Below are positions 6,024-63,652 of a stretch of DNA of 64,000 bases, piece after piece (position 1 is the first letter of the stretch; every line of letters begins with the position of its first letter). The notes under the pieces were generated by a model, which was given only the letters and a program-made list of their open reading frames with translations, searched no databases and was not told where the DNA came from. The translations under genes and the position numbers were made by a program. This DNA is from Candidatus Binatia bacterium. GTDB taxonomy: Bacteria; Desulfobacterota; Binatia; HRBIN30. The DNA is taken from NCBI GenBank assembly GCA_026415395.1, contig JAOAHD010000017.1:209001-273000 (forward strand), given 5' to 3'.

Positions 6024-6788
6024 TTAACGCATACCACCATCGACTCGGATGATCGCCCCGGTAGTGTAGCTAGACGCCGGCGTGGCGAGGTAAAGGGCTG
6101 TTCCCACAATCTCCGAAGGGTCTCCGATCCGACGCAACGCGATGTTCGTCTGTGCGTAACTAGCCACGGCGTCGAGGTCCCAATGGCGACTGACATCGGT
6201 CAAAAACGGTCCTGCTTCGATCGCGTTCACGCGCACCTTAGGGCCGAAGGCCTGCGCTAGGGCCAAGGTCAGCGTGTTCAACCCAGCTTTTGCTGCCGCA
6301 TACGGCGCCTCAGCGGGCGTCGGGCGTTCCGCGGCAACACTCGTGACATTGATGATCACCCCGCCGTCGCCGCTCGCCATCCGACTACCGATGACGCTAG
6401 CAAGACGAAACGGACCCTTGAGGTTCACCGCGAGTACCTTGTCGTAAAGCTCCTCAGTGATTTCTGGTAACGACGGATACAATGGGGACATTCCGGCATT
6501 ATTCACCAAAATGTCGATGCGACCAAAGGCGTTGTAAACGACGTCGATCAGATGATCGATTTCGCTCCACTTCCCCACGTGGCACGCCACGGGCAGCGCC
6601 CGCCGTCCGATTGCTTCAACCTCCTTCGCGACACGTTCACAGTTGTCCCGCTTGCGGCTGGCAATCACCACGTCGGCGCCTGCCCTCGCAAAGCCAAGCA
6701 CCATTTCGCGGCCCAGCCCGCGGCTCCCCCCTGTCACAAGCGCAATCCTTCCCCGCAGATCGAACAGTGAAGCCAACTTGAGATCCAT
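6024..6788 (-). CDS. Short-chain dehydrogenase/reductase (SDR)
   Basis: A 254-residue classical SDR with the NAD(P) motif TGGSRGLG, the NNAG motif, the catalytic Ser in INVTSV and the YAAAK Tyr/Lys pair. The end TGAIIRVDGGMR is typical of 3-oxoacyl-ACP reductase or gluconate-5-dehydrogenase-like members. ATG at 6788 has AAGGAGG eight bases upstream. A slightly longer GTG start overlaps that ribosome site and is rejected. It stands alone, tail to tail with the histidine kinase gene and divergent from cstA. Arg after the Gly-rich loop (ASRKRD) favours NADP, but the substrate is unknown. Confidence 0.9.
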   Translation of the reverse strand: MDLKLASLFDLRGRIALVTGGSRGLGREMVLGFARAGADVVIASRKRDNCERVAKEVEAIGRRALPVACHVGKWSEIDHLIDVVYNAFGRIDILVNNAGMSPLYPSLPEITEELYDKVLAVNLKGPFRLASVIGSRMASGDGGVIINVTSVAAERPTPAEAPYAAAKAGLNTLTLALAQAFGPKVRVNAIEAGPFLTDVSRHWDLDAVASYAQTNIALRRIGDPSEIVGTALYLATPASSYTTGAIIRVDGGMR

Positions 6789-7049
6789 CCAAGGCACCTC
6801 CTTGCGGCGGCATATTGTTCGGCGTTGCCCAATCTACCCTAACCTACAATTATCGCAGCGACCGAACCCTCCTAAGCCCAGCGTCCGTTTTGGCTGATCG
6901 CTCAGTCCCTAGCTTCACTGCCCAAGCACTGCTTGTGAACGGGCTTACAGGCCCACGTTGCACTGTCGATGGCGAATTGGCAGAAGCTCAGTCAATTTGG
7001 CGACAGAATAGGTCGACAGACCAGATCTCTAACCGCCGCTGGAGGAGCC

Positions 7050-9222: not shown

Positions 9223-9960
9223 TCACCGAAACCACGGCGGTAGTTCGTCCGTCACCTCATCCTGTCGCGGTGGGAAGCTCTCCGGTGGGGCGCTCGTCGG
9301 TTTCACGCGGCGAGTCGCTGGTTCAAGGCCTAGCTGCCGAGGTGGTTTCCCTCCTCGAGAGGATTTTGACCGAGAAGACCTTTCCCCAGGAGAATCCGGT
9401 GCCGGAGTTGCAACCGGGGTGGGCGTGAACCAAAGAACGGGAAAGCCGGGGACTTTAATCACTGGTGTGCGGGTAGCCGTGGCTCGCGGCGGAAGCTGCG
9501 TCAGCACACCGAGTCGTGGAGAGATTGTAGGCCCCTTTTTAACCGACTCAGAACTTGCCGCTCCTGGTTTGCCTTCGGCGGGTCGCGTCTCTGGCGCGGT
9601 TTCGCCGGAGACAAATGCACGAAAGACGGCCTGACATTCTTTCGTGGTCCGCGCAAACGAAAGTTCACGGAGCCACGAGGGAATCACCCCAACCTTCGAC
9701 CGCACCACCGCTTCGATCACAGCCAAGTAGTCATCCGCTGCTCCCAACATGCTGTCGGCCTGCGGGCTGGGCTTGCCCGCAAGGAGCGCAGCACGCCGGA
9801 CACACACATCAAATGCTTCCTGAAAGAGCCCTCGCTCGTCCAACTGCGCGAGCTCCTCCCTGCTCTTACTATCCCGCTCGCTCTCCCAGCGAGCGCCCGC
9901 GATTCGCGCCCCACCCGCCAAAACGCTCGCAACAAGGACCGCGACCACGATCCATTTCAT
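9223..9960 (-). CDS. Hypothetical exported protein with Pro/Thr-rich linker
   Basis: A 245-residue protein not assigned to a family. ATG at 9960 is preceded by TAAGGA and starts MKWIVVAVLVASVLAGGA, a signal peptide or membrane anchor. The next ~100 residues are mostly helical with two Cys (FDVCVRR, TKECQAVF), which could form a disulphide outside the cytoplasm. The last ~110 residues are low-complexity, with Pro/Thr runs such as TPTPVATPAPDSP and basic/Ser stretches. The same linker style recurs in other exported proteins of the window. It is convergent with cstA. Function unknown. Confidence 0.6.
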   Translation of the reverse strand: MKWIVVAVLVASVLAGGARIAGARWESERDSKSREELAQLDERGLFQEAFDVCVRRAALLAGKPSPQADSMLGAADDYLAVIEAVVRSKVGVIPSWLRELSFARTTKECQAVFRAFVSGETAPETRPAEGKPGAASSESVKKGPTISPRLGVLTQLPPRATATRTPVIKVPGFPVLWFTPTPVATPAPDSPGERSSRSKSSRGGKPPRQLGLEPATRRVKPTSAPPESFPPRQDEVTDELPPWFR

Positions 9961-55282: not shown

Positions 55283-55331
55283 GTTCGCCATCCGCCATCC
55301 GCCATTCGCTCTTCGCTACTCGAGAGTCGCT
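55283..55331 (+). repeat. Partial heptamer array overlapping the hydroxylase gene end
   Basis: Seven units (GTTCGCC, ATCCGCC twice, ATTCGCT, CTTCGCT, ACTCGAG, AGTCGCT) with a seven-base period. The last units encode, on the other strand, the final codons and stop of the hydroxylase-like gene (55316). Confidence 0.7.
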
Positions 55332-56137
55332 CCGTGTCGCCGGTCGGGCGCGAGGCCGGGTGGCCAAGCACAGGCGGCCAGGTAAGCACGAAACGGTAGG
55401 CTCGCGGCCTCGTGCATCGCACGGATCGCAGGTCGGGGGAGTCGCTGCAAAAACGGCACGCGGAACTGCAAGTACAGCAGGGCAATTGCGCCGAGCACCA
55501 AGGAACAATTTCTCAGGTTGCCGCCGCCGTACTCGGGCTTCATCACGTCGCACATGAGGATGATGCGCGGGCGGTCGCTCAAGTTCCACACGTAGTGTCG
55601 CCGGGCATCGTTGAACACCACCACTCCGCCTTCCTCCCAACCGCGCCGCTCACCGTCAACTTCGATTCCGCACAACTCCGCCGGACCCGGCACGACCAGC
55701 CCCAGGTGCGCACGGTAAAAAAGATTGGTGTCGCCACAATGTTGCGGCAACCGCGCTCCGGGTTCGAGCACGCTGAACGAGGCGGACACTAGGTCAGGAA
55801 TTGTCGCTAACACCGAGGCGGTATGCGGAAACGCGCGCAACGCCTGGCGATAGGGGCGCCGCTGGGTAACGAGCTTGATTCCACCCCACCCGCGAATGTC
55901 CACCCGATCGGGGATGAAGTGCTCAGCGAAGCGGCCGCCGTGCTCCAAGTAGGCTTGCAGCTCCGCGCGAATTGCTGGGCACTCGCGCCGCAAGATTGCA
56001 GTCCACGGCAAAGTTGCGGGATCGTAAAAGCGCGGTCCTGCCCCCGCATAGTTCCCGTAAATGCGGAAGTAGAGCGGCTCGTTTTCCCCAAAGCTGCTCG
56101 CCGGAACTGCCGTGTCTACCGGTCGAAGTGCACTCAT
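55316..56137 (-). CDS. Aspartyl/asparaginyl beta-hydroxylase-like protein
   Basis: 273 residues. A jelly-roll 2-oxoglutarate/Fe(II) oxygenase-like core: SASFSVLEPGARLPQHCGDTN, RAHLGLVVP and EEGGVVVFNDARRHYVWN. The His and Arg positions of AspH-type enzymes are visible (PQHCGD, RAHLG, DARRHY). A hydrophobic C-terminal segment (LVLGAIALLYLQFRVPFL) may anchor it. The last codons are contributed by a repeat array, so the C-terminus (RRHGATLE) may be extended relative to homologues. The gene follows sthA with a 147 bp gap. Confidence 0.85.
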   Translation of the reverse strand: MSALRPVDTAVPASSFGENEPLYFRIYGNYAGAGPRFYDPATLPWTAILRRECPAIRAELQAYLEHGGRFAEHFIPDRVDIRGWGGIKLVTQRRPYRQALRAFPHTASVLATIPDLVSASFSVLEPGARLPQHCGDTNLFYRAHLGLVVPGPAELCGIEVDGERRGWEEGGVVVFNDARRHYVWNLSDRPRIILMCDVMKPEYGGGNLRNCSLVLGAIALLYLQFRVPFLQRLPRPAIRAMHEAASLPFRAYLAACAWPPGLAPDRRHGATLE

Positions 56138-56284: not shown

Positions 56285-57703
56285 CTAAGGCCGCACGTCG
56301 GGCGCATCGAACACGCGGTTCAGCCCGTTCAGGGCAGCCACCCGGTAAGCTTCGGCCATCGTCGGATAGTTAAATGTGGTGTTCACGAAGTAGCGTAGCG
56401 AATTGGCGCTGCCCTTCTGCGAAATAATCGCTTGGCCGATGTGGACAATCTCGGCAGCCTGGTCGCCAAAACAGTGAATGCCGAGAATCTCCAGCGTTTC
56501 GCGGTGAAATAAAAGTTTCAGCATGCCCACGGTGTGCCCGGTAATCTGAGCGCGCGCGAGGCTTTTGAAAAACGCGTGACCGACCTCGTACGGCACCTTG
56601 GCAGCCGTCAGTTCCCGCTCGGTTTTTCCCACCGAGCTGATCTCTGGAATCGTGTAAATGCCAGTGGGAATGAACTCGATCAGGTGCTCGCAGCGCCCGT
56701 ACAGCCAGTGCGCGACGGCAAACCGACCCTGATCGTACGCAGCGCTGGCCAGCGCGGGAAAGCCAACTACGTCGCCCACCGCATACACGTGAGGCACAGC
56801 GGTTTGATAGTTTTCGTTCACCGGAATGTTGCCGCGAGAGTCCACCTGAATACCCAACGCTTCCAGCCCGAGCCCGTCGGTGTTGCCGGTGCGACCGTTG
56901 GCCCACAACAAGATATCGGTCTTCAGCTTCTTCCCCGACTTGAGGTGCAACACCACACCGTCATCCCGCCCTTCCACGCGTTCGTACTCTTCGTTGTGGC
57001 GAATCAGCGCGCCCTGGTCGCGCAAGTGATAGGCGAGTGCGTCGATGATTTCGTCATCGAGAAATTCGAGCAATTTTCCGCGCGTGTTCACCAAGTTGAG
57101 CTTCGCGCCGAGGTTGCGGAAGATCGATGCGTATTCGCAGCCGACCACTCCGGCTCCGTAAATGGTGACCGACTGCGGCATTTCCTCCAAGCCGAGGATC
57201 GTCTGCGCGTCGAAAATACGCGGGTGGGAGAAGTCCACATCGGGCGGACGATAAGGACGCGAGCCCACGGCAATGACAAACGCATCGGCAACCACCCGCT
57301 CGCGCGCTCCACGCTCGTCTTCGACTTCGACGGTGTGGGCATCGACAAAGCGCGCCCGCCCGCGCACAAGCTGCACATGATTGCGCTCGTAAAACGACTC
57401 GCGCAGGGCCACTTGCTTTTGGATCACCTCCTGCGCCGAGCGCAGCAGTTGCGGGAAGGTCACCCTTGGCGGCTTGAAGCCGAGGTCACGCCAGAGCGGG
57501 CTCGAGCTGTACTCGATCCACTGCCGTACTGCGTAGCGCAATGCTTTGCTCGGGATCGTGCTCCAGTGTGTGCAGCTTCCGCCCACGGCACGGTAGCGTT
57601 CCACCACGGCAACGCGTTTCCCAGCTTTGGCAGCGCGCATCGCAGCCCCCTCACCGCCGGGTCCGCTGCCAATCACACACAAGTCCACTCGGTGCGTGGC
57701 CAC
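56285..57703 (-). CDS. sthA: Soluble pyridine nucleotide transhydrogenase
   Basis: 472 residues of the pyridine-nucleotide-disulphide reductase family. FAD motif [19 protein letters not shown]; the second Cys of the redox-active disulphide is replaced ([16 protein letters not shown]), as in SthA rather than lipoamide dehydrogenase. The NAD-binding [13 protein letters not shown] and the FAD/NAD segment [21 protein letters not shown] are typical. It interconverts NADPH and NADH in the cytoplasm. Start is GTG. It is 15 bp after the PhyH-like gene, so is probably part of the operon and could regenerate the coenzyme balance during acyl-CoA oxidation. Confidence 0.93.
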
Positions 57704-57718
57704 AAATCCTGCCTTTCC

Positions 57719-58531
57719 TCACCGCGCATCCCACACCAAGCGCACACCCCCTTGCTCCTCGTCGAGGAGGAACATCGGGCTGCGCTTGTCGATGTGACCG
57801 ATGAGTCCGTTGTACACGCTGTAGCCAACCAACTCCCGGAGACGGCGGCTAAAGCCGCGGGCGATCTCCCGCGGAATTCCGAGCTGCTGGTTCTCCTGCT
57901 GGCGGATGAAGCCAGCGCAATAATTCATGGCAATGCCAATGCGGCGCTCGCTCGTCCGATTCGCGCCGCCGCCGTGCCACAAGCTGCCGTGCCACACCAA
58001 CACGCTTCCCTTCGGCATCTCCGCGGCAATTGTGTCGTACTGTTCCCCAATTACGGGGTGGCTATCGAACTTGTGGGAACCCGGCACCAAACGCGTCGCC
58101 CCGTTTTCTTCGGTGAAATCGGTGAGGGCCCACATGGTGTTGCACACCACCGGAGGATGCGGCCGGGCAATGGGAATCAATTGATCATCGGAGTGAATGG
58201 GCTGGGCGCGCTCGCCTGGGCAAATGGCAATGGAGGAAAGCGACGAGACGAGGCAACCCGGGGCCAGTACCCGCTCGACCAGTGGCAGAACATTTTCATG
58301 CACTGGGATGCGCTCGTACAGCTTGCCGTGCACGAGCAGGTTGTAAATCCGCACCGTGCGCGTGCCCTCGAACAAGTTCTTCGCCGGTTTGATGTTGTAC
58401 TCGCGCTCGATTCGGTAGAGGTCCTCCACCAGGGCGTCGACCAACTCCGGCTCGATCACGCGTTCGAGGATCGTGTAGCCGTCTTCCTCGATTCGCCGAA
58501 GGTGGGCTCGCAGTTCGCCATCGCTCAGCAC
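57719..58531 (-). CDS. Phytanoyl-CoA dioxygenase (PhyH) family protein
   Basis: 270 residues. The Fe(II)/2-oxoglutarate motif is HSDDQ (H-x-D) plus a distal His in LWHGGGANRTS, and Arg binds 2-oxoglutarate. Members hydroxylate acyl-CoA or related substrates at the alpha carbon. GTG start with AAGGAG seven bases upstream. It lies between a desulforedoxin-like mini-gene and sthA in a minus-strand operon that includes two crotonases and an acyl-CoA ligase. Confidence 0.9.
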   Translation of the reverse strand: MLSDGELRAHLRRIEEDGYTILERVIEPELVDALVEDLYRIEREYNIKPAKNLFEGTRTVRIYNLLVHGKLYERIPVHENVLPLVERVLAPGCLVSSLSSIAICPGERAQPIHSDDQLIPIARPHPPVVCNTMWALTDFTEENGATRLVPGSHKFDSHPVIGEQYDTIAAEMPKGSVLVWHGSLWHGGGANRTSERRIGIAMNYCAGFIRQQENQQLGIPREIARGFSRRLRELVGYSVYNGLIGHIDKRSPMFLLDEEQGGVRLVWDAR

Positions 58532-58573: not shown

Positions 58574-58693
58574 TCATTTTTTGATCTCCATCTCGACCCC
58601 GCAGCATTTGAGTGTTCCGGAACCGCCTTTGGTGACCACAACCTGCGCTTTACACTTTGGACACTGGTAAATCTTGCCAATTTGATTCGCCAT
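58574..58693 (-). CDS. Desulforedoxin-like mini-protein 2 (39 aa)
   Basis: 39 residues starting MANQIGKIYQCPKCKAQ; four Cys at 11, 14, 30 and 31 give CX2C-X15-CC, the metal-binding spacing of desulforedoxin and the N-terminal domain of desulfoferrodoxin. The spacing and the following CCGVEM match the family closely. An AGGAGG-type site precedes the ATG (GAGGAGGACGGGA). It probably binds one iron per chain (as a dimer in desulforedoxin). The gene was too short for the larger ORF set, but coding sense, ribosome site and position between crotonase (33 bp) and PhyH (42 bp) genes support it. Confidence 0.82.
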   Translation of the reverse strand: MANQIGKIYQCPKCKAQVVVTKGGSGTLKCCGVEMEIKK

Positions 58694-58726
58694 TCCCGTC
58701 CTCCTCACATGGGCATCGCCTACAGT

Positions 58727-59485
58727 TCACCGCCCACGAAACCGCGGGCGCTTTTTTAGCCGAAACGCCTCGATGCCCGCACGCCAATCCTCGGTGGTTT
58801 GCAACAGCACATACAAGTCTTCCTCGAGCCTTAGGCCTTGCTCCAAGGTGCCATCGAGTCCTTGGCCTACCGCCTCCTTGATGTAACGCAAGCCGAGGGG
58901 CGCGCGCTCGGCCAGTTCGCGGGCGAAATCTTCGGCGGCAGCAAACAGGCGGGCGTCCGGGTGCACAGCGTTCACCAAGCCCCACTGCAGCGCTTGGCGA
59001 GCGGATAACCGCCGGCCAGTCCACAAGAGCTCGAGCGCGCGCATCCGCCCGATCAAGCGCGGCAGCCTCTGCGTTGCACCATTGCACGGGAAGCGACCAT
59101 CGCGGAGCTGCGGCAATGCAAAATACGCCCGCGCGGAGGCAAAACGTAGGTCGCAGGCGAGGGCAAGTTCACACCCTTCTGCAACCGCGCCACCCTGAAT
59201 CACGGCAATCACCGGGCAGGAAACACTGGCGAGCGCGGTGATGGCGCACAGCCGTCTTGGCTCCGTTGTTTCCGTAAGCCCGAGGCAAAATTCCCTCGCT
59301 TGTGACCGCAGCAACAGCACGCGGACCGCATCGTCGAAGCTCACCTCCTCGATCGCAAGGGAAAGCTGGCTATCCGTAGTGGCATCCAACCAGCCGTCGC
59401 TGGAAGGTGCGAGAAAAGAAAGTACAGCCACCGCACCCCGCCGCTGCAAACGCACGCCGCTGGAAGCCGAGCGTCTTTGCGTCAT
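58727..59485 (-). CDS. Enoyl-CoA hydratase/isomerase (crotonase) family
   Basis: 252 residues. Oxyanion region QGGAVAEGCELALACDLRFA. The first catalytic Glu position is Gln (LPQLRDG), while the second is kept (ALELLWTG), so it may be an isomerase or other crotonase rather than a plain hydratase. Length and end (KKRPRFRGR) are normal. It sits between the acyl-CoA ligase and the mini-gene at 58574 on the same strand, 33-50 bp gaps. Confidence 0.87.
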   Translation of the reverse strand: MTQRRSASSGVRLQRRGAVAVLSFLAPSSDGWLDATTDSQLSLAIEEVSFDDAVRVLLLRSQAREFCLGLTETTEPRRLCAITALASVSCPVIAVIQGGAVAEGCELALACDLRFASARAYFALPQLRDGRFPCNGATQRLPRLIGRMRALELLWTGRRLSARQALQWGLVNAVHPDARLFAAAEDFARELAERAPLGLRYIKEAVGQGLDGTLEQGLRLEEDLYVLLQTTEDWRAGIEAFRLKKRPRFRGR

Positions 59486-59535
59486 TGCGGTGTTGTCGCC
59501 TCGTTGTTCGTGGTGTTCACAGCCGAGGGCACCCG

Positions 59536-61110
59536 TTAGTCACCGCTGTGCACGAACTCTCCTCGCTCCCAACGTTCGCGCAAATCCCGGCGCAATACCT
59601 TGCCCAACGGATTCTTCGGGAGTTCGGACACGAAGTACACAAAGTCAGGCTTCTTAAAACTGGCGAGCCGCTGCCGGCAAAACTCGATGAGCTCTTCGGC
59701 GGTCGCCTCACTGCCCGGGCGCCGCACGACAAAGGCGGCGACCCGCTGCCCCCACTCGACGTCGGGCACACCAATCACGGCGACGTCCTCAACCGCGGGG
59801 TGGGAGAACAACGTGCTTTCGACTTCCGCCGGCGCGATGTTCTCCCCGCCGCGAATGATCATGTCGTCCTTGCGACCGGCGAGGAACACGTACCCGTCTT
59901 CGTCAATCCAGCCCATGTCGCGCGTTGGCAACCAACCGTCGCGTTGCAGGGGCGACTCCACGCCGCTTGCCGTACGGTATCCCTTCATCACTCGCGGCGT
60001 GCGCACCCAAATTTCCCCCACCTCACCGCGCGGTAGCTCTCGGCCTTCTTCATCGACAACGATGAGCTCCACGTCGGGCAGCGGGCGGCCGATCGAACGC
60101 AAGCGGCGGAGTTTGATCTCGTCTTGCTCGGGTGAGCCCGTCAACCGGTGGTCTTCCGGGCCCAGCACGGTCAGCGTCGAAGTGGTCTCCGTTTGGCCAA
60201 AGGCATTGACGAAGCCCAGCGAGCGGGGAAACACCTCGATGGCTCGCCGGATCACCGGGAAGGGCATCGGCGCACCTCCGTACGAGAGCACTTCCAGGCT
60301 CGATAGGTCGCGGTGAGGGAAGTCCGGATGATCGAGGATTTGCTTGAGCATTGTCGGGACCACGAACGCGTGAGTCACACGCTCGCGCTCTACGGTTTCG
60401 AGCCAAGCGCCGGCCTCGAATTGCGGCAGCAACACCATGCGCCGGCCGGTCCAAACGTTCGTCATGATGTTGGTTGCGCCCGCGATGTGATAGAGCGGCA
60501 CGCACACCAGCGCAGTGCCGCGCGGCGTGCCGTCCGCAAGCTCGACGTTGCTCGTCACATATTGGCTGAAGTCGCCGTGGGTCAGGAGCACAGCTTTGGG
60601 CTGCGCCGTCGTGCCGCTGGTGTACATCAGAATGGCGGTCTCTTCGTCGTCGACCTCCACCGCTTCCTCCAGGGGCGGATCTGCGAGCAGCTCTTCGTAG
60701 CGCCTTCCCACGGTATTGTCGGTACCGACAGCAACCACGAGCGGGCGCTCAGGCAGGCGAGCGAGCAGTTCCTGCAGCGTGGGCACGTAACGGTCCCCCA
60801 CGAACAACACGCGCACGCCCGCACTAGCAATCATGAACTCGAGCTCCGGCGGTTTGGCGCGGTAGTTGAGCGGGAGAAACACTCCGCCTACAGCGGCCGT
60901 GGCATAATACGCGGTCACGTACCGATCGGAGTTCGTGTCCAGCACGGCAACGCATTGTCCGGGCTGCACCCCGACTCCTCGCAACCCGCTCGCCAATCGG
61001 CGCGCTTCCTCCCAGAGCTCCCCGTACGACCAAGCGCGGCCTTGAAAGCGCACCGCTTCCTGCTCCGGAAACAAGCCCGCCGGAATGCCCAAGAAATTTG
61101 CTGTATTCAC
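59536..61110 (-). CDS. Long-chain acyl-CoA ligase (AMP-binding)
   Basis: 524 residues. Motifs of the adenylate-forming family: LMYTSGTTAQPKAVLLTHGD, GRKDDMIIRGGENI and the catalytic C-terminal Lys in PKNPLGKVLRRDLRE. It activates a carboxylate to acyl-CoA. GTG start overlaps the stop of the upstream crotonase (GTGA), with GGGAGG six bases upstream. The substrate is not predictable; the operon context fits a fatty or side-chain acid. Confidence 0.93.
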   Translation of the reverse strand: MNTANFLGIPAGLFPEQEAVRFQGRAWSYGELWEEARRLASGLRGVGVQPGQCVAVLDTNSDRYVTAYYATAAVGGVFLPLNYRAKPPELEFMIASAGVRVLFVGDRYVPTLQELLARLPERPLVVAVGTDNTVGRRYEELLADPPLEEAVEVDDEETAILMYTSGTTAQPKAVLLTHGDFSQYVTSNVELADGTPRGTALVCVPLYHIAGATNIMTNVWTGRRMVLLPQFEAGAWLETVERERVTHAFVVPTMLKQILDHPDFPHRDLSSLEVLSYGGAPMPFPVIRRAIEVFPRSLGFVNAFGQTETTSTLTVLGPEDHRLTGSPEQDEIKLRRLRSIGRPLPDVELIVVDEEGRELPRGEVGEIWVRTPRVMKGYRTASGVESPLQRDGWLPTRDMGWIDEDGYVFLAGRKDDMIIRGGENIAPAEVESTLFSHPAVEDVAVIGVPDVEWGQRVAAFVVRRPGSEATAEELIEFCRQRLASFKKPDFVYFVSELPKNPLGKVLRRDLRERWERGEFVHSGD

Positions 61111-61880
61111 CTTGACCTCCCTCTATTTTGCCTGCGCAAGACGGCGACGACGCGATTGGCCAAGCGGTTTTCGAGGCGCAAGGCTGATTCGAGACTCAGA
61201 TCGAGTCCTTCCCCGACGGCACGTTTACTCGCAGAGAGCAGCTCCGGGGCGAGCGCTGCCAGTCGCTTCGCGATTCTTAAAACCGTGCTTTCCAGCCGCT
61301 CTCGCGGTACCACTCGAACGGCGAGCCCCCACGCCATCGCTTCATGCGGTCGGATCCAACGCGCGCTCCACAACACTTCGAGGGCGCGGCCCGGACCCGC
61401 CAAGCGCGGCGTGGTTTGCGTCCCGCCCACGCCCGGAATGGTGCCCAAGCCAGTTTCCGGGTAACGCAGCCGAGCATCCTCGCTCAGCACGCAGAGATCG
61501 CAAAGGAGAGCGAACTCGAGCCCGCCCCCCACCGCGTACCCATGAACGCCGACCACCATTGGTTTCGGCAAGGTTGCCAGCAAACCGGCCACATCGCGCC
61601 GCCAGCGAGCTGCGCGCGCGGCCGTCGGGCTCGCTGCCGTGCCGAATTCGTGCACGTCGCCACCCGAGCAAAACGAAGGACCGTTCCCGAGCAGAACCCC
61701 CACGCGCACCTCGGGATCATCGCGCAGCGCCGTCAGCGCCGCATACAGGCTGTCGCGCATTGCCATGTTGTAGGCGTTGTGCACCTCGGGACGGTTAAGG
61801 CGCACCACCGCGACAGGCCCTTGCTTTTCGTACAGAACCGGCGGGGCCGCTCTGCGTGTGTGCGGCCTTTGCCCGGCCAT
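61107..61880 (-). CDS. Enoyl-CoA hydratase/isomerase (crotonase) family
   Basis: 257 residues. VVGVHGYAVGGGLEFALLCDLCV and YPETGLGTIPGVGGTQTTPRLAG with both Glu positions (PETGLG and ALEVLWS) retained, so a hydratase activity is plausible. The ribosome site is the TGAGG formed by the stop of the mini-gene at 61888, five bases before ATG 61880, so the pair is coupled. The first ~15 residues (MAGQRPHTRRAAPP) are basic and Pro-rich. Confidence 0.9.
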   Translation of the reverse strand: MAGQRPHTRRAAPPVLYEKQGPVAVVRLNRPEVHNAYNMAMRDSLYAALTALRDDPEVRVGVLLGNGPSFCSGGDVHEFGTAASPTAARAARWRRDVAGLLATLPKPMVVGVHGYAVGGGLEFALLCDLCVLSEDARLRYPETGLGTIPGVGGTQTTPRLAGPGRALEVLWSARWIRPHEAMAWGLAVRVVPRERLESTVLRIAKRLAALAPELLSASKRAVGEGLDLSLESALRLENRLANRVVAVLRRQNRGRSR

Positions 61881-61887
61881 CGCGGCC

Positions 61888-62031
61888 TCAGTCGCTCGAA
61901 GGAACTGGCTTCGCTTCCTTCACTTGCACTTCCGCCCCGCAACACTCAATCGTGCCAGGGCCCGGTTTGGTGCAGAGGATTTCCGTGCCGCACTGATTGC
62001 ACACGTAGCGTTTGCCCAACAACGTCGGCAT
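61888..62031 (-). CDS. Desulforedoxin-like mini-protein 1 (47 aa)
   Basis: 47 residues starting MPTLLGKRYVCNQCGTEI; Cys at 11, 14, 30 and 31 give the same CX2C-X15-CC as the mini-protein at 58574, plus an extra Cys20. GTIECCGAEVQV follows the family consensus. The tail (KEAKPVPSSD) is longer. AAGGAGG lies just upstream of the ATG. It is 43 bp after ygfZ and is coupled to the crotonase 61107-61880, whose ribosome site begins in its stop codon. The two mini-proteins align gaplessly through the CCG motif, so they are paralogues. Confidence 0.85.
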   Translation of the reverse strand: MPTLLGKRYVCNQCGTEILCTKPGPGTIECCGAEVQVKEAKPVPSSD

Positions 62032-62074: not shown

Positions 62075-63175
62075 TCACAGCTTGACCGGCAGCTCAAGGA
62101 ATGGCATCGCGACGACCTCGACCTCGACTCGCCCCTGCGGCCAGCGACTGTCCAAAGTGGTCCCAGGGTCCCAGCATTCGCGGCGCACGTAGGCGAAGCC
62201 GATTCCGCGCTCAAGTGCAGGCGACCAACCGGCGCTCGTCACCGCACCGACCTCATGGCCGCCATGCCACACTTTCGCCCCACGCTCCGGCAACGCGCTC
62301 CCGCGGCAAACGAAACCGACGCGCTTGCGTTGCACTTGGCCACGCGCAGCAATCCTCTCTACCACCTCTTGCCCCAGGTAGCAGCCCTTGCCGTAAGCAA
62401 TCGCCGTCTCGAGATCGGCTTCGGCAATCAGGGACGACTCATCCATGTCGTCTCCGGCCAATGGGATCCCTGCCTCGAGCCGCAAAACGTCGAGTGCGAG
62501 CCGCCCCACAGGGCGCGCACCAGCGTGCACCAGTTGGGCCCAAAGCAACGGAAAGGCATTCGGGGGGCCAATAAACAGGTAGCCGCGCTCACCCGTATGC
62601 GTGACCGCGGCAACGCGCAGGCGATGTTTGTTCAGAACGACTTCCACATTCCCGTGCAAGGGCAAGGAGCGCGCGAGCTCCAACGGAAATCCGGGCAGGC
62701 TAGCGAGGACGGTGTCGACACTTCGGCCCTCCACTGCTAGCAAAGGGACCCACTCGGGCTCGCGGAACTCCACGTCGTCGGCAACGATGTAGTGTGCCAA
62801 ATGTTCGCGCAATCGGTCCGCGCGCCTCGTCGGCGCGTCGAGCCAGATCTCCTCTTCGAGCGCGTACACGCGCAGGTCGCTGACCACCCGCCCTTGCACG
62901 GTTACCGCCGCTGCATACGTGCCGCGGCCCGGCGCAAGCGACCGCACATCCGCCGTAATCATGCCTTGCAGGAAGGACACACGGTCTGCACCAGCGAGCA
63001 CCCAGAGCTTGCGGAAACTCGCCTCGAACACCCCAGCGTACTCGCGCACGGTTGCCCATTCGCGCTTCCAGTCGCCAAAATGCAAGGCACCCTCGCTTTC
63101 CCACAAATGCCCGAGCGCTGCGCCCGCAGCCTGCAAGGTCGTCAGCCAAGATTCAGTTTCCGCTAATACTGGCAT
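62075..63175 (-). CDS. ygfZ: Folate-binding YgfZ family protein (GcvT-like)
   Basis: 366 residues of the aminomethyltransferase-like fold. The YgfZ signature is KGCYLGQEVVERIAARG, with the conserved Cys. It lacks clear glycine-cleavage T-protein catalytic residues. YgfZ proteins help maintain Fe-S enzymes such as MiaB. The gene begins the minus-strand series; its start is beside island 3. The presence of iron-binding mini-proteins downstream suits an Fe-S-related role. Confidence 0.9.
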   Translation of the reverse strand: MPVLAETESWLTTLQAAGAALGHLWESEGALHFGDWKREWATVREYAGVFEASFRKLWVLAGADRVSFLQGMITADVRSLAPGRGTYAAAVTVQGRVVSDLRVYALEEEIWLDAPTRRADRLREHLAHYIVADDVEFREPEWVPLLAVEGRSVDTVLASLPGFPLELARSLPLHGNVEVVLNKHRLRVAAVTHTGERGYLFIGPPNAFPLLWAQLVHAGARPVGRLALDVLRLEAGIPLAGDDMDESSLIAEADLETAIAYGKGCYLGQEVVERIAARGQVQRKRVGFVCRGSALPERGAKVWHGGHEVGAVTSAGWSPALERGIGFAYVRRECWDPGTTLDSRWPQGRVEVEVVAMPFLELPVKL

Positions 63176-63586: not shown

Positions 63587-63652
63587 ATTCGCTATTCGCC
63601 ATTCGCGGTTTCTCACCACTCGCCACTCGCTACTCGCCACTCGCTGCTCGCC
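63587..63652 (+). repeat. Heptamer array copy 3
   Basis: Three units near ATTCGCY, the core GTTTCTCACC, then five units near ACTCGCY, in strict seven-base steps. Confidence 0.85.

What the first reader, a model, noticed from the sequence alone, without database searches (positions are those of the whole stretch)
58574..62031. Twin desulforedoxin-like mini-genes in an acyl-CoA operon
Two tiny genes (39 and 47 codons) both have Cys at 11, 14, 30 and 31 (CX2C-X15-CC), the desulforedoxin spacing. One precedes a crotonase with coupled translation; the other follows a second crotonase and precedes a PhyH-like oxygenase. The order ygfZ, Dx1, crotonase, acyl-CoA ligase, crotonase, Dx2, PhyH, sthA is unusual because desulforedoxin modules are known mainly from anaerobic superoxide or electron-transfer proteins. 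They might carry electrons or deliver iron to the oxygenase. The function is inference.
Basis: partly seen in the sequence, partly recalled or inferred. Interest (0 to 1): 0.72.

Follow-up and report, generated by a model that had tools for sequence, protein, structure and literature searches.

The report
Desulforedoxin-fold partners of an acyl-CoA module
Two tiny genes beside acid-processing enzymes encode a conserved pair of partner proteins that look like a known iron protein but seem to be kept for an unusual tail and one sulfur atom, because some relatives have lost every iron-binding residue.

Summary
Both mini-genes are under strong purifying selection and belong to a conserved block, ygfZ-DxA-(amidohydrolase)-crotonase-AMP ligase-crotonase-DxB, in eight families of the window's class (Candidatus Binatia). 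Both have the desulforedoxin fold (best PDB match 1dxg). They are distinct subfamilies: DxA (47 aa) ends in a near-invariant tail, here KEAKPVPSSD, and has a fifth Cys. Outside the class the two genes mostly lie side by side.

PhyH follows DxB in only 4 of 29 DxB loci read. In 17 genomes read (an 18th inferred) one DxB-DxA fusion replaces the pair: 16 of 17 have lost all four DxA metal cysteines, the other three of four, yet all keep the tail and a non-ligand Cys. One fusion sits in the intact operon; others lie elsewhere in genomes whose operon stands without Dx genes. 86 of 87 Binatia genomes with the ligase match a Dx model.

Best explanation: a small heterodimeric adaptor or activator of the ligase-crotonase module, with a structural, dispensable metal. 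The biochemical action is inferred. Rivals: LysW-like carrier, thiol acyl carrier, rubredoxin-type electron carrier.

The parts
62075..63175 (-). ygfZ (CAF17-like, GCV_T fold), immediately upstream of DxA
   Evidence: Pfam GCV_T; NCBIfam TIGR03317 59.3 bits over its cut-off 49; near DxA in 29 of 29 DxA loci read
61888..62031 (-). DxA, 47 aa, desulforedoxin fold, Cys 11/14/30/31 plus Cys20, tail KEAKPVPSSD exactly at the C-terminus
61107..61880 (-). crotonase 1 (ech1/echa); the column I take for the first catalytic Glu is Glu in all 89 rows aligned
   Evidence: Pfam ECH_1; best PDB match 3-hydroxypropionyl-CoA dehydratase 5zai
59536..61110 (-). AMP-forming acyl-CoA ligase (acs)
   Evidence: Pfam AMP-binding and AMP-binding_C; NCBIfam PRK06187 477.5 bits over 476
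58727..59485 (-). crotonase 2 (ech2/echb); first catalytic Glu column mostly Gln
   Evidence: Pfam ECH_1; Gln in 65 of 79 rows, Glu in 3
58574..58693 (-). DxB, 39 aa, desulforedoxin fold, Cys 11/14/30/31
   Evidence: Pfam Desulfoferrod_N over cut-off; Foldseek 1dxg TM 0.85, rmsd 0.6
57719..58531 (-). PhyH-family oxygenase; lineage-specific neighbour, not part of the conserved module
   Evidence: downstream of DxB in 4 of 29 DxB loci
56285..57703 (-). sthA (Si-specific NAD(P)+ transhydrogenase); lineage-specific neighbour
   Evidence: NCBIfam PRK05249 715.3 bits over 465; with DxB in the same 4 of 29 loci

Best explanation
DxA and DxB are the two halves of a small desulforedoxin-fold partner protein, probably a heterodimer, for an acyl-CoA module made of an AMP-forming acyl-CoA ligase and two crotonases with different active sites. 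SHOWN by sequence: two conserved subfamilies; conserved order; close co-occurrence with the ligase in Binatia; a natural DxB-DxA fusion; loss of the metal ligands with retention of the GKRY/K-x-G skeleton, a non-ligand cysteine and the exact C-terminal end; genomes where a fusion elsewhere stands in for the missing resident pair. INFERRED: the two proteins bind each other, and the DxA tail docks into the ligase or a crotonase and is needed for its folding, assembly or activity, as MbtH-like proteins serve adenylation domains. The Fe or Zn site only staples the little fold and can be lost once the two halves are fused.
For: Conserved order in Binatia: ygfZ near DxA in 29 of 29 DxA loci, ech2 beside DxB in 29 of 29 DxB loci. 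echb-echa-ligase-DxB-DxA in all six genomes of other classes of the phylum whose contig was long enough (G233, G104, G306, G262, G240, G138); a seventh, G162, is cut at DxB. Class of 148 genomes: ligase ortholog in 87, of which 85 match the DxA model (two of them, G389 and G397, through DxB only) and one more, G399, the DxB model at 8.9e-7 (not read); the last, G366, is 83% complete and its contig starts and ends inside the operon (Fisher on 85/2/15/46, not corrected for kinship). Phylum sample of 297: crotonase 1 in 17, DxA or fusion in 16, both in 14. Of 22 genomes with DxA that I took to be outside Binatia, 17 have crotonase 1 at 53% identity or more. Fusions: 17 read, C-terminal PxSSD end kept in all, a thiol at position 20 or 26 in all. 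G012 has ygfZ-fusion-ech1-ligase-ech2. G021, G025, G052 and G398 keep ygfZ-amidohydrolase-echa-ligase with no Dx in the stretch fetched and a fusion on another contig. On the ligase tree type I bearers fall in f4, f9 and f11, among or beside Cys-type ones.
Against: Nothing shows physical contact; docking is inference. Partners are not constant: 9 of 22 non-Binatia genomes had no ligase at E<=1e-80, 5 of 22 no close crotonase 1, and in G009, G011, G013 and G014 the ligase sits with CaiB-like genes without the two crotonases beside it. Nine of 17 Chloroflexi-titled loci have the pair near a pyrK-type gene, mostly with carB and YjbQ, not acyl-CoA genes. All 77 distinct split-type DxA of the named contigs keep all four ligands (G104 has Cys-His in place of Cys-Cys), so the metal matters there. 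Three genomes have crotonase 1 without an intact Dx: G202, G091 and G274. DxA tail confidence is low (pLDDT about 60), so no docking pose is shown. Kinship inflates the co-occurrence figures.
Confidence: 0.5

Rival explanations
1. Carrier protein like LysW: a substrate is joined to the carboxylate of the invariant C-terminal Asp of DxA and worked on there by the neighbouring enzymes.
For: C-terminal Asp in 77 of 77 distinct split DxA and 17 of 17 fusions (the label DxA required an Asp end, see biases). LysW is a small Zn protein whose C-terminal Glu in EDWGE takes the substrate (PMC10433800, passages). Weak Pfam LysW-like hits to both proteins.
Against: LysW hits far below the cut-off (14.4 and 10.6 bits against 27); no EDWGE; no ATP-grasp LysX-like gene among the conserved neighbours identified (no dedicated search); AMP ligases normally join acyl groups to thiols (recalled); the crotonases match CoA-ester enzymes.
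Confidence: 0.13
2. Rubredoxin-type electron carrier pair for a redox step of the acyl-CoA pathway.
For: Desulforedoxin fold and four Cys in the split-type DxA; a pyrK-type gene near the pair in 9 of 17 Chloroflexi-titled loci; CaiB, NMO and HgdC-like genes near the pair in some genomes of the phylum.
Against: The conserved partners, ligase and crotonases, need no electrons (recalled chemistry). DxA ligands are lost in the fusions (16 of 17 fully) while the module persists, and 0 of 18 such genomes has a PF06397 protein over the cut-off.
Confidence: 0.15
3. Iron donor or electron donor to the PhyH oxygenase.
For: Adjacency in the window and its closest relatives.
Against: PhyH follows DxB in only 4 of 29 DxB loci and in the 80 named-contig loci only in three records of the same genomes.
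Confidence: 0.03
4. Thiol-based acyl carrier: the conserved non-ligand Cys of DxA (20, or 26 in type I fusions) accepts an acyl group from the ligase and the tail steers the crotonases.
For: All 77 distinct split DxA and all 17 fused DxA halves keep a Cys at 20 or 26, even where all or nearly all metal ligands are gone. The ligase goes with Dx in Binatia.
Against: Type I fusions share sequence and may have one origin, so the shift to 26 may be one event; that 20 and 26 face each other was not tested; the crotonases look like CoA-ester enzymes.
Confidence: 0.1

Closest known systems
Desulforedoxin of Desulfovibrio gigas (PDB 1dxg; Pfam PF06397)
   Same: Fold (Foldseek probability 1.00 for both models; DxB TM 0.85, DxA TM 0.64 by query length), CX2C-X15-CC spacing, size
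   Different: Two paralogs that usually occur as a pair; DxA has a fifth Cys and a conserved C-terminal tail; fused relatives lack the metal ligands; tied to acyl-CoA genes
N-terminal domain of desulfoferrodoxin / superoxide reductase (TIGR00319, TIGR00320)
   Same: Same small domain (PDB 1dfx, 2ji1, 1vzg)
   Different: No superoxide reductase domain; scores below both NCBIfam cut-offs
LysW/ArgW amino-group carrier proteins
   Same: Tiny four-Cys protein with a conserved acidic C-terminal residue (PMC10433800, passages)
   Different: Not a member by the Pfam cut-off; different tail; no ATP-grasp partner seen
MbtH-like proteins (NRPS adenylation-domain partners)
   Same: Works-like only: a small protein partner of an AMP-forming enzyme (complex structures listed in PMC11253843, passages; activator role recalled)
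   Different: No relation in sequence claimed or tested; MbtH carries no metal site (recalled)
DUF35 zinc-ribbon/OB-fold proteins of acyl-CoA enzymes (SSO2064)
   Same: Zn-ribbon protein proposed to bind acyl-CoA (PMC2954200, start of abstract in a search listing)
   Different: Two domains; no Pfam DUF35 match among the hits listed for DxA or DxB at E<=1

Membership tests
Desulforedoxin / Desulfoferrod_N (PF06397) | CX2C-X15-CC ligand pattern | tested here: met
   77 of 77 distinct split DxA of named contigs; exception G104 with CH for CC
Desulforedoxin / Desulfoferrod_N (PF06397) | Pfam gathering score 23 | tested here: inconclusive
   DxB 29.8 (met), DxA 17.6 (not met)
Desulforedoxin / Desulfoferrod_N (PF06397) | NCBIfam TIGR00319 cut-off 36.05 | tested here: not met
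   24.0 and 12.5 bits
Desulforedoxin / Desulfoferrod_N (PF06397) | Desulforedoxin fold | tested here: met
   1dxg best hit, probability 1.00, rmsd 0.6 (DxB) and 1.3 (DxA), though E-values only about 0.01 for so short a chain
Desulforedoxin / Desulfoferrod_N (PF06397) | Fe(SCys)4 centre | not testable with these tools
   metal identity needs purified protein
Desulfoferrodoxin / superoxide reductase | SOR catalytic domain (TIGR00320, cut-off 146.9) | tested here: not met
   23.8 and 16.3 bits, N-terminal domain only
LysW carrier proteins | Pfam LysW-like ribbon (PF21344, cut-off 27) | tested here: not met
   14.4 and 10.6 bits
LysW carrier proteins | C-terminal EDWGE with modified Glu | tested here: not met
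   tail is of the KEAKPLPSSD type
LysW carrier proteins | LysX-type ATP-grasp ligase in the operon | not tested
   none among the conserved neighbours identified by Pfam; no dedicated search made
MbtH-like proteins | Binds and activates an AMP-forming enzyme | not testable with these tools
   no complex prediction available; co-occurrence only

The most novel reading that the evidence does not exclude
A desulforedoxin-fold protein has become an acyl-carrying or ligase-activating partner: the AMP ligase hands the acyl group to the conserved non-ligand thiol of DxA (position 20, shifted to 26 in type I fusions), and the C-terminal tail presents it to the two crotonases. This would be an acyl-transfer protein without phosphopantetheine, in which the ancestral metal site is an expendable staple.
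Probability: 0.1. Interest if true: 0.88.

Novelty: new variant of a known kind. Interest (0 to 1): 0.66.

Why it matters
Proteins of this size are usually filed by their cysteines as electron carriers. Here the natural record shows the cysteines going while the tail, one thiol and the enzyme partnership stay, so the family was probably kept for something else. It makes an uncharacterised acyl-CoA pathway of mostly uncultured bacteria testable with a five-gene expression set, and warns against reading tiny four-Cys proteins as redox proteins by default. I found no paper linking desulforedoxin proteins to acyl-CoA genes (searches; open-licence library only).

Tried and rejected
Rejected: iron or electron donor to PhyH; superoxide reductase (no SOR domain); membership in LysW; chance ORFs. 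RNA families and tRNAs in the window: none.

Led nowhere: literature searches for desulforedoxin with acyl-CoA and enoyl-CoA hydratase (0 papers), desulforedoxin-like plus operon (2, both on C. difficile and oxygen; listing only), all 'desulforedoxin' papers (12; listing only), domain names (0). The Binatota genome paper PMC8262859 has 0 occurrences of rubredoxin, desulfoferrodoxin, enoyl-CoA or crotonase and one passage on acyl-CoA (passages). A broad search on rubredoxin, enoyl-CoA hydratase, small protein and operon (67 papers, 15 listed) gave no relevant title among those listed.

Biases and limits: one of the two peptide patterns used contains the tail, and my DxA label requires an [SA][SA]D end; the partly independent evidence is that loci brought in by the other pattern, around Cys20, have different tails (such as QEPRPIPSSD) with the same end, and the HMM hits. 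Only the best 80 of 327 relatives were kept. The split-type set was found with a Cys-type model, so Cys-less forms far from Binatia could have been missed. The 2x2 tests ignore kinship. Genome searches score only some candidates, so absences are soft: G190 was not listed although its contig holds the crotonase pair. G009's fusion was not read (17 of 18 read) and G399's Dx match was not read. The row counts (89 and 79) include some genomes twice, because loci overlap; its Glu columns were chosen from recalled knowledge of enoyl-CoA hydratase, and the second column is noisy. Only 4 of 9 type II ligases were put in the tree.
Full report
1. WHAT IS THERE. The two mini-genes are at 58574-58693 (DxB, 39 codons) and 61888-62031 (DxA, 47 codons), both minus strand, each with Cys 11, 14, 30 and 31 and a GGAGG-type ribosome site. 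DxB passes Pfam Desulfoferrod_N (29.8 bits, cut-off 23); DxA does not (17.6). Both fall under the NCBIfam cut-offs TIGR00319 and TIGR00320. phmmer against the PDB puts desulforedoxin first for both (E 1.1e-4 and 6.1e-3). AlphaFold models (mean pLDDT 76 for DxA and 82 for DxB) match 1dxg best: DxB TM 0.85, rmsd 0.6; DxA TM 0.64, rmsd 1.3, probability 1.00, though Foldseek E-values are only about 0.01 for such short chains. The last residues of DxA have low confidence (about 60).

2. REAL GENES. Against G001 and G002, DxA differs at 25 of 47 third codon positions but at only 5 or 6 first plus second positions; DxB at 24 and 19 of 39 against 5 and 6. dN is 0.05-0.09; dS is mostly beyond calculation.

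3. THE SAME ORDER ACROSS THE CLASS. Of 58 related genomes, 35 had a Desulfoferrod_N match at E<=0.1. I fetched 34 stretches and read 33 (L054 was unrelated). They hold 29 DxA and 29 DxB. ygfZ lies near DxA in 29 of 29, at most about 2 kb away; ech2 lies beside DxB in 29 of 29. Many have an amidohydrolase (Amidohydro_3) between DxA and crotonase 1. PhyH and sthA follow DxB only in G000 (the window), G001, G002 and G004, 4 of 29. Five of the 33 carry BolA and a Grx4-type glutaredoxin downstream of DxB and a sixth (L057) has them nearby on the other strand. Contig lengths identify G002 with Bacterium HR30 and G001 with a Candidatus Binatia MAG; both are in the window's genus. Split-type DxA occurs in eight families of the class (f1, f2, f3, f8-f12).

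4. TWO SUBFAMILIES. DxA (29 sequences): invariant GKRY, Cys 11/14/20/30/31, K22, G24, G26, K38-E39-A40-K41 and P44-S45-S46-D47. DxB (29): V20 T21 K22 and the four Cys, no Cys20, no tail. In a wider set of 68 DxA, G6 K7 R8, all five Cys, E17, L19, P44 and D47 are invariant.

5. BEYOND THE CLASS. The genome-contig scan found 327 relatives of DxA; the best 80 were kept. By title and context most are Binatia (some titles, such as Klebsiella, are clearly wrong); 17 are titled Chloroflexi or Dehalococcoidia, and there are a Deferrisomatales MAG and the actinomycete Asanoa iriomotensis. All 80 end in [SA][SA]D (partly by construction); DxB was found in 61 of 80, the other 19 being in part short or cut contigs, but also the 20-kb Asanoa locus. 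In 16 of the 17 Chloroflexi-titled loci DxB and DxA are side by side in that order, in L153 reversed. The same DxB-DxA order holds in seven genomes of other classes of the window's phylum; in the six with enough contig (G233, G104, G306, G262, G240, G138) it follows echb-echa-ligase, with CaiB-type CoA-transferases nearby in several. G104's DxA has His in place of the last ligand Cys. In G448 a DxB follows echb-echa on one contig while DxA lies on another. In 9 of the 17 Chloroflexi-titled loci a pyrK-type gene, mostly with carB and YjbQ, stands nearby instead.

6. CO-OCCURRENCE. Class, 148 genomes: DxA model in 100 (79 split-type at E<1e-20, 18 of fusion type, 3 through DxB only); ligase ortholog (E<=1e-120) in 87. 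85 of the 87 have a DxA-model match; G399 matches the DxB model at 8.9e-7 (not read) in a 63%-complete genome whose operon itself has no Dx; G366 is 83% complete and its contig starts and ends within the operon. Fifteen have the DxA-model match without the ligase at that threshold: the nine type II fusion genomes, of which eight show a divergent ligase beside the fusion (34-43%), and G347, G350, G352, G355, G386 and G054, all 53-88% complete. Phylum, 297 genomes: crotonase 1 (E<=1e-62) in 17, DxA or fusion (E<=1e-10) in 16, both in 14. Exceptions: G202 keeps only a tail remnant behind the ligase, G091 and G274 have no DxA match at that level; G162's contig is cut and G030 is a type II genome. 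G190, with DxB at a contig end, was not listed but has echb-echa-ligase-DxB. Fisher p 1e-22 (class) and 2e-19 (phylum), not corrected for kinship. In 22 genomes with DxA that I took to be outside Binatia, 13 had a ligase at E<=1e-80 (best hits 36-53%) and 17 a crotonase 1 at 53% or more.

7. THE DECISIVE OBSERVATION: THE METAL CAN GO, THE TAIL STAYS. In 18 genomes of the class the only DxA-model match is of a weaker type. I read 17: each is a protein of about 100 residues made of a DxB half and a DxA half, 8 of type I and 9 of type II. In the DxA half 16 of 17 have none of the four ligand cysteines and one (G025) has a Cys at 30; all 17 keep LGKRY, E17, L19, K22, G24, K38 and P44-S45-S46-D47 without the residue between varying in length. 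The DxB half of type I has no ligand Cys either; that of type II keeps two Cys. As in the 77 distinct split DxA, a non-ligand Cys remains: at 20 in 9 of 9 type II, at 26 in 8 of 8 type I. None of the 18 genomes has a PF06397 match over the cut-off. G012 has the fusion in the operon: ygfZ-fusion-ech1-ligase-ech2. In G021, G025 and G398 the operon stands without Dx genes at either site, in G052 without DxA (its contig ends after the ligase), and the fusion lies on another contig; in G009, G011, G013 and G014 the ligase sits beside CaiB-like genes without Dx. On a ligase tree G021 lies inside f11 (support 0.86-1.0), G025 and G052/G398 inside f9 with Cys-type members (1.0), f4 forms its own clade (0.93), and the four type II ligases used form another (1.0). 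The relatives found outside the class are split-type with cysteines, so loss is probably the derived state; they were found with a Cys-type model. Type I proteins resemble each other across families, so one origin with transfer is as likely as repeated loss.

8. HOW IT MOST LIKELY WORKS. The same DxB-DxA order in the fusion and in side-by-side genes suggests that the two proteins form one heterodimeric unit (D. gigas desulforedoxin is a homodimer; recalled). In Binatia the unit is found wherever the ligase is, in place or elsewhere. Its least variable feature is a flexible C-terminal peptide ending exactly at Asp. I therefore think it is an adaptor or activator whose tail docks into the ligase or a crotonase, with the metal as a staple. 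The two crotonases differ: the first catalytic Glu column is Glu in 89 of 89 rows of type 1 and Gln in 65 of 79 of type 2 (some genomes twice), so they probably do different steps; the substrate is unknown. LysW-like carriage, thiol acyl carriage and electron transfer remain as rivals; the last is badly hurt by section 7.

9. STATUS. Fold known; family variant, architecture and partnership not found in the held literature. New variant of a known kind, interest 0.66.

Noticed in passing
window 58727-59485 and relatives: Crotonase 2 has lost the first catalytic Glu of enoyl-CoA hydratases (Gln in 65 of 79 rows) while crotonase 1 keeps it in 89 of 89: two paralogs with different active sites in one operon.
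   Followed up: partly
L126, L148, L151, L160, L168, L171: DxB-DxA sit beside carB, pyrK (DHODB Fe-S domain) and YjbQ (UPF0047) rather than acyl-CoA genes (clusters, one representative each identified).
   Followed up: partly
L042, L045, L048, L060, L066 (and L057 on the other strand): BolA and a Grx4-family monothiol glutaredoxin lie beyond DxB; with ygfZ upstream this gives an iron-sulfur flavour to the neighbourhood in these genomes.
   Followed up: no
L251 around 6760-6800 (G202): Dx genes missing; a remnant of the DxA tail stands right behind the ligase stop, either a recent deletion or an assembly error.
   Followed up: partly
L179 around 9450-9590 (G104): A split-type DxA in which the last ligand Cys is His (CC to CH), tail intact: a further sign that the metal site drifts.
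   Followed up: no
L223 9495-9617 (G028:C10) and L233 3629-3868 (G373:C158): Extra DxA copies outside the operon: the first looks degenerate, the second keeps all cysteines and the tail.
   Followed up: no
L185 5529-6287, L218 6322-7029: A PhyH-family gene (36-39% to the window's) lies upstream of type II fusions in family f13 too.
   Followed up: no
window 55316-56137: Aspartyl/asparaginyl beta-hydroxylase-family protein, nearest to OlsC/LpxO lipid hydroxylases but far below their NCBIfam cut-offs.
   Followed up: no
window 63612-63652: Short imperfect tandem repeat with 7/14-base unit CTCGCCA upstream of ygfZ.
   Followed up: no
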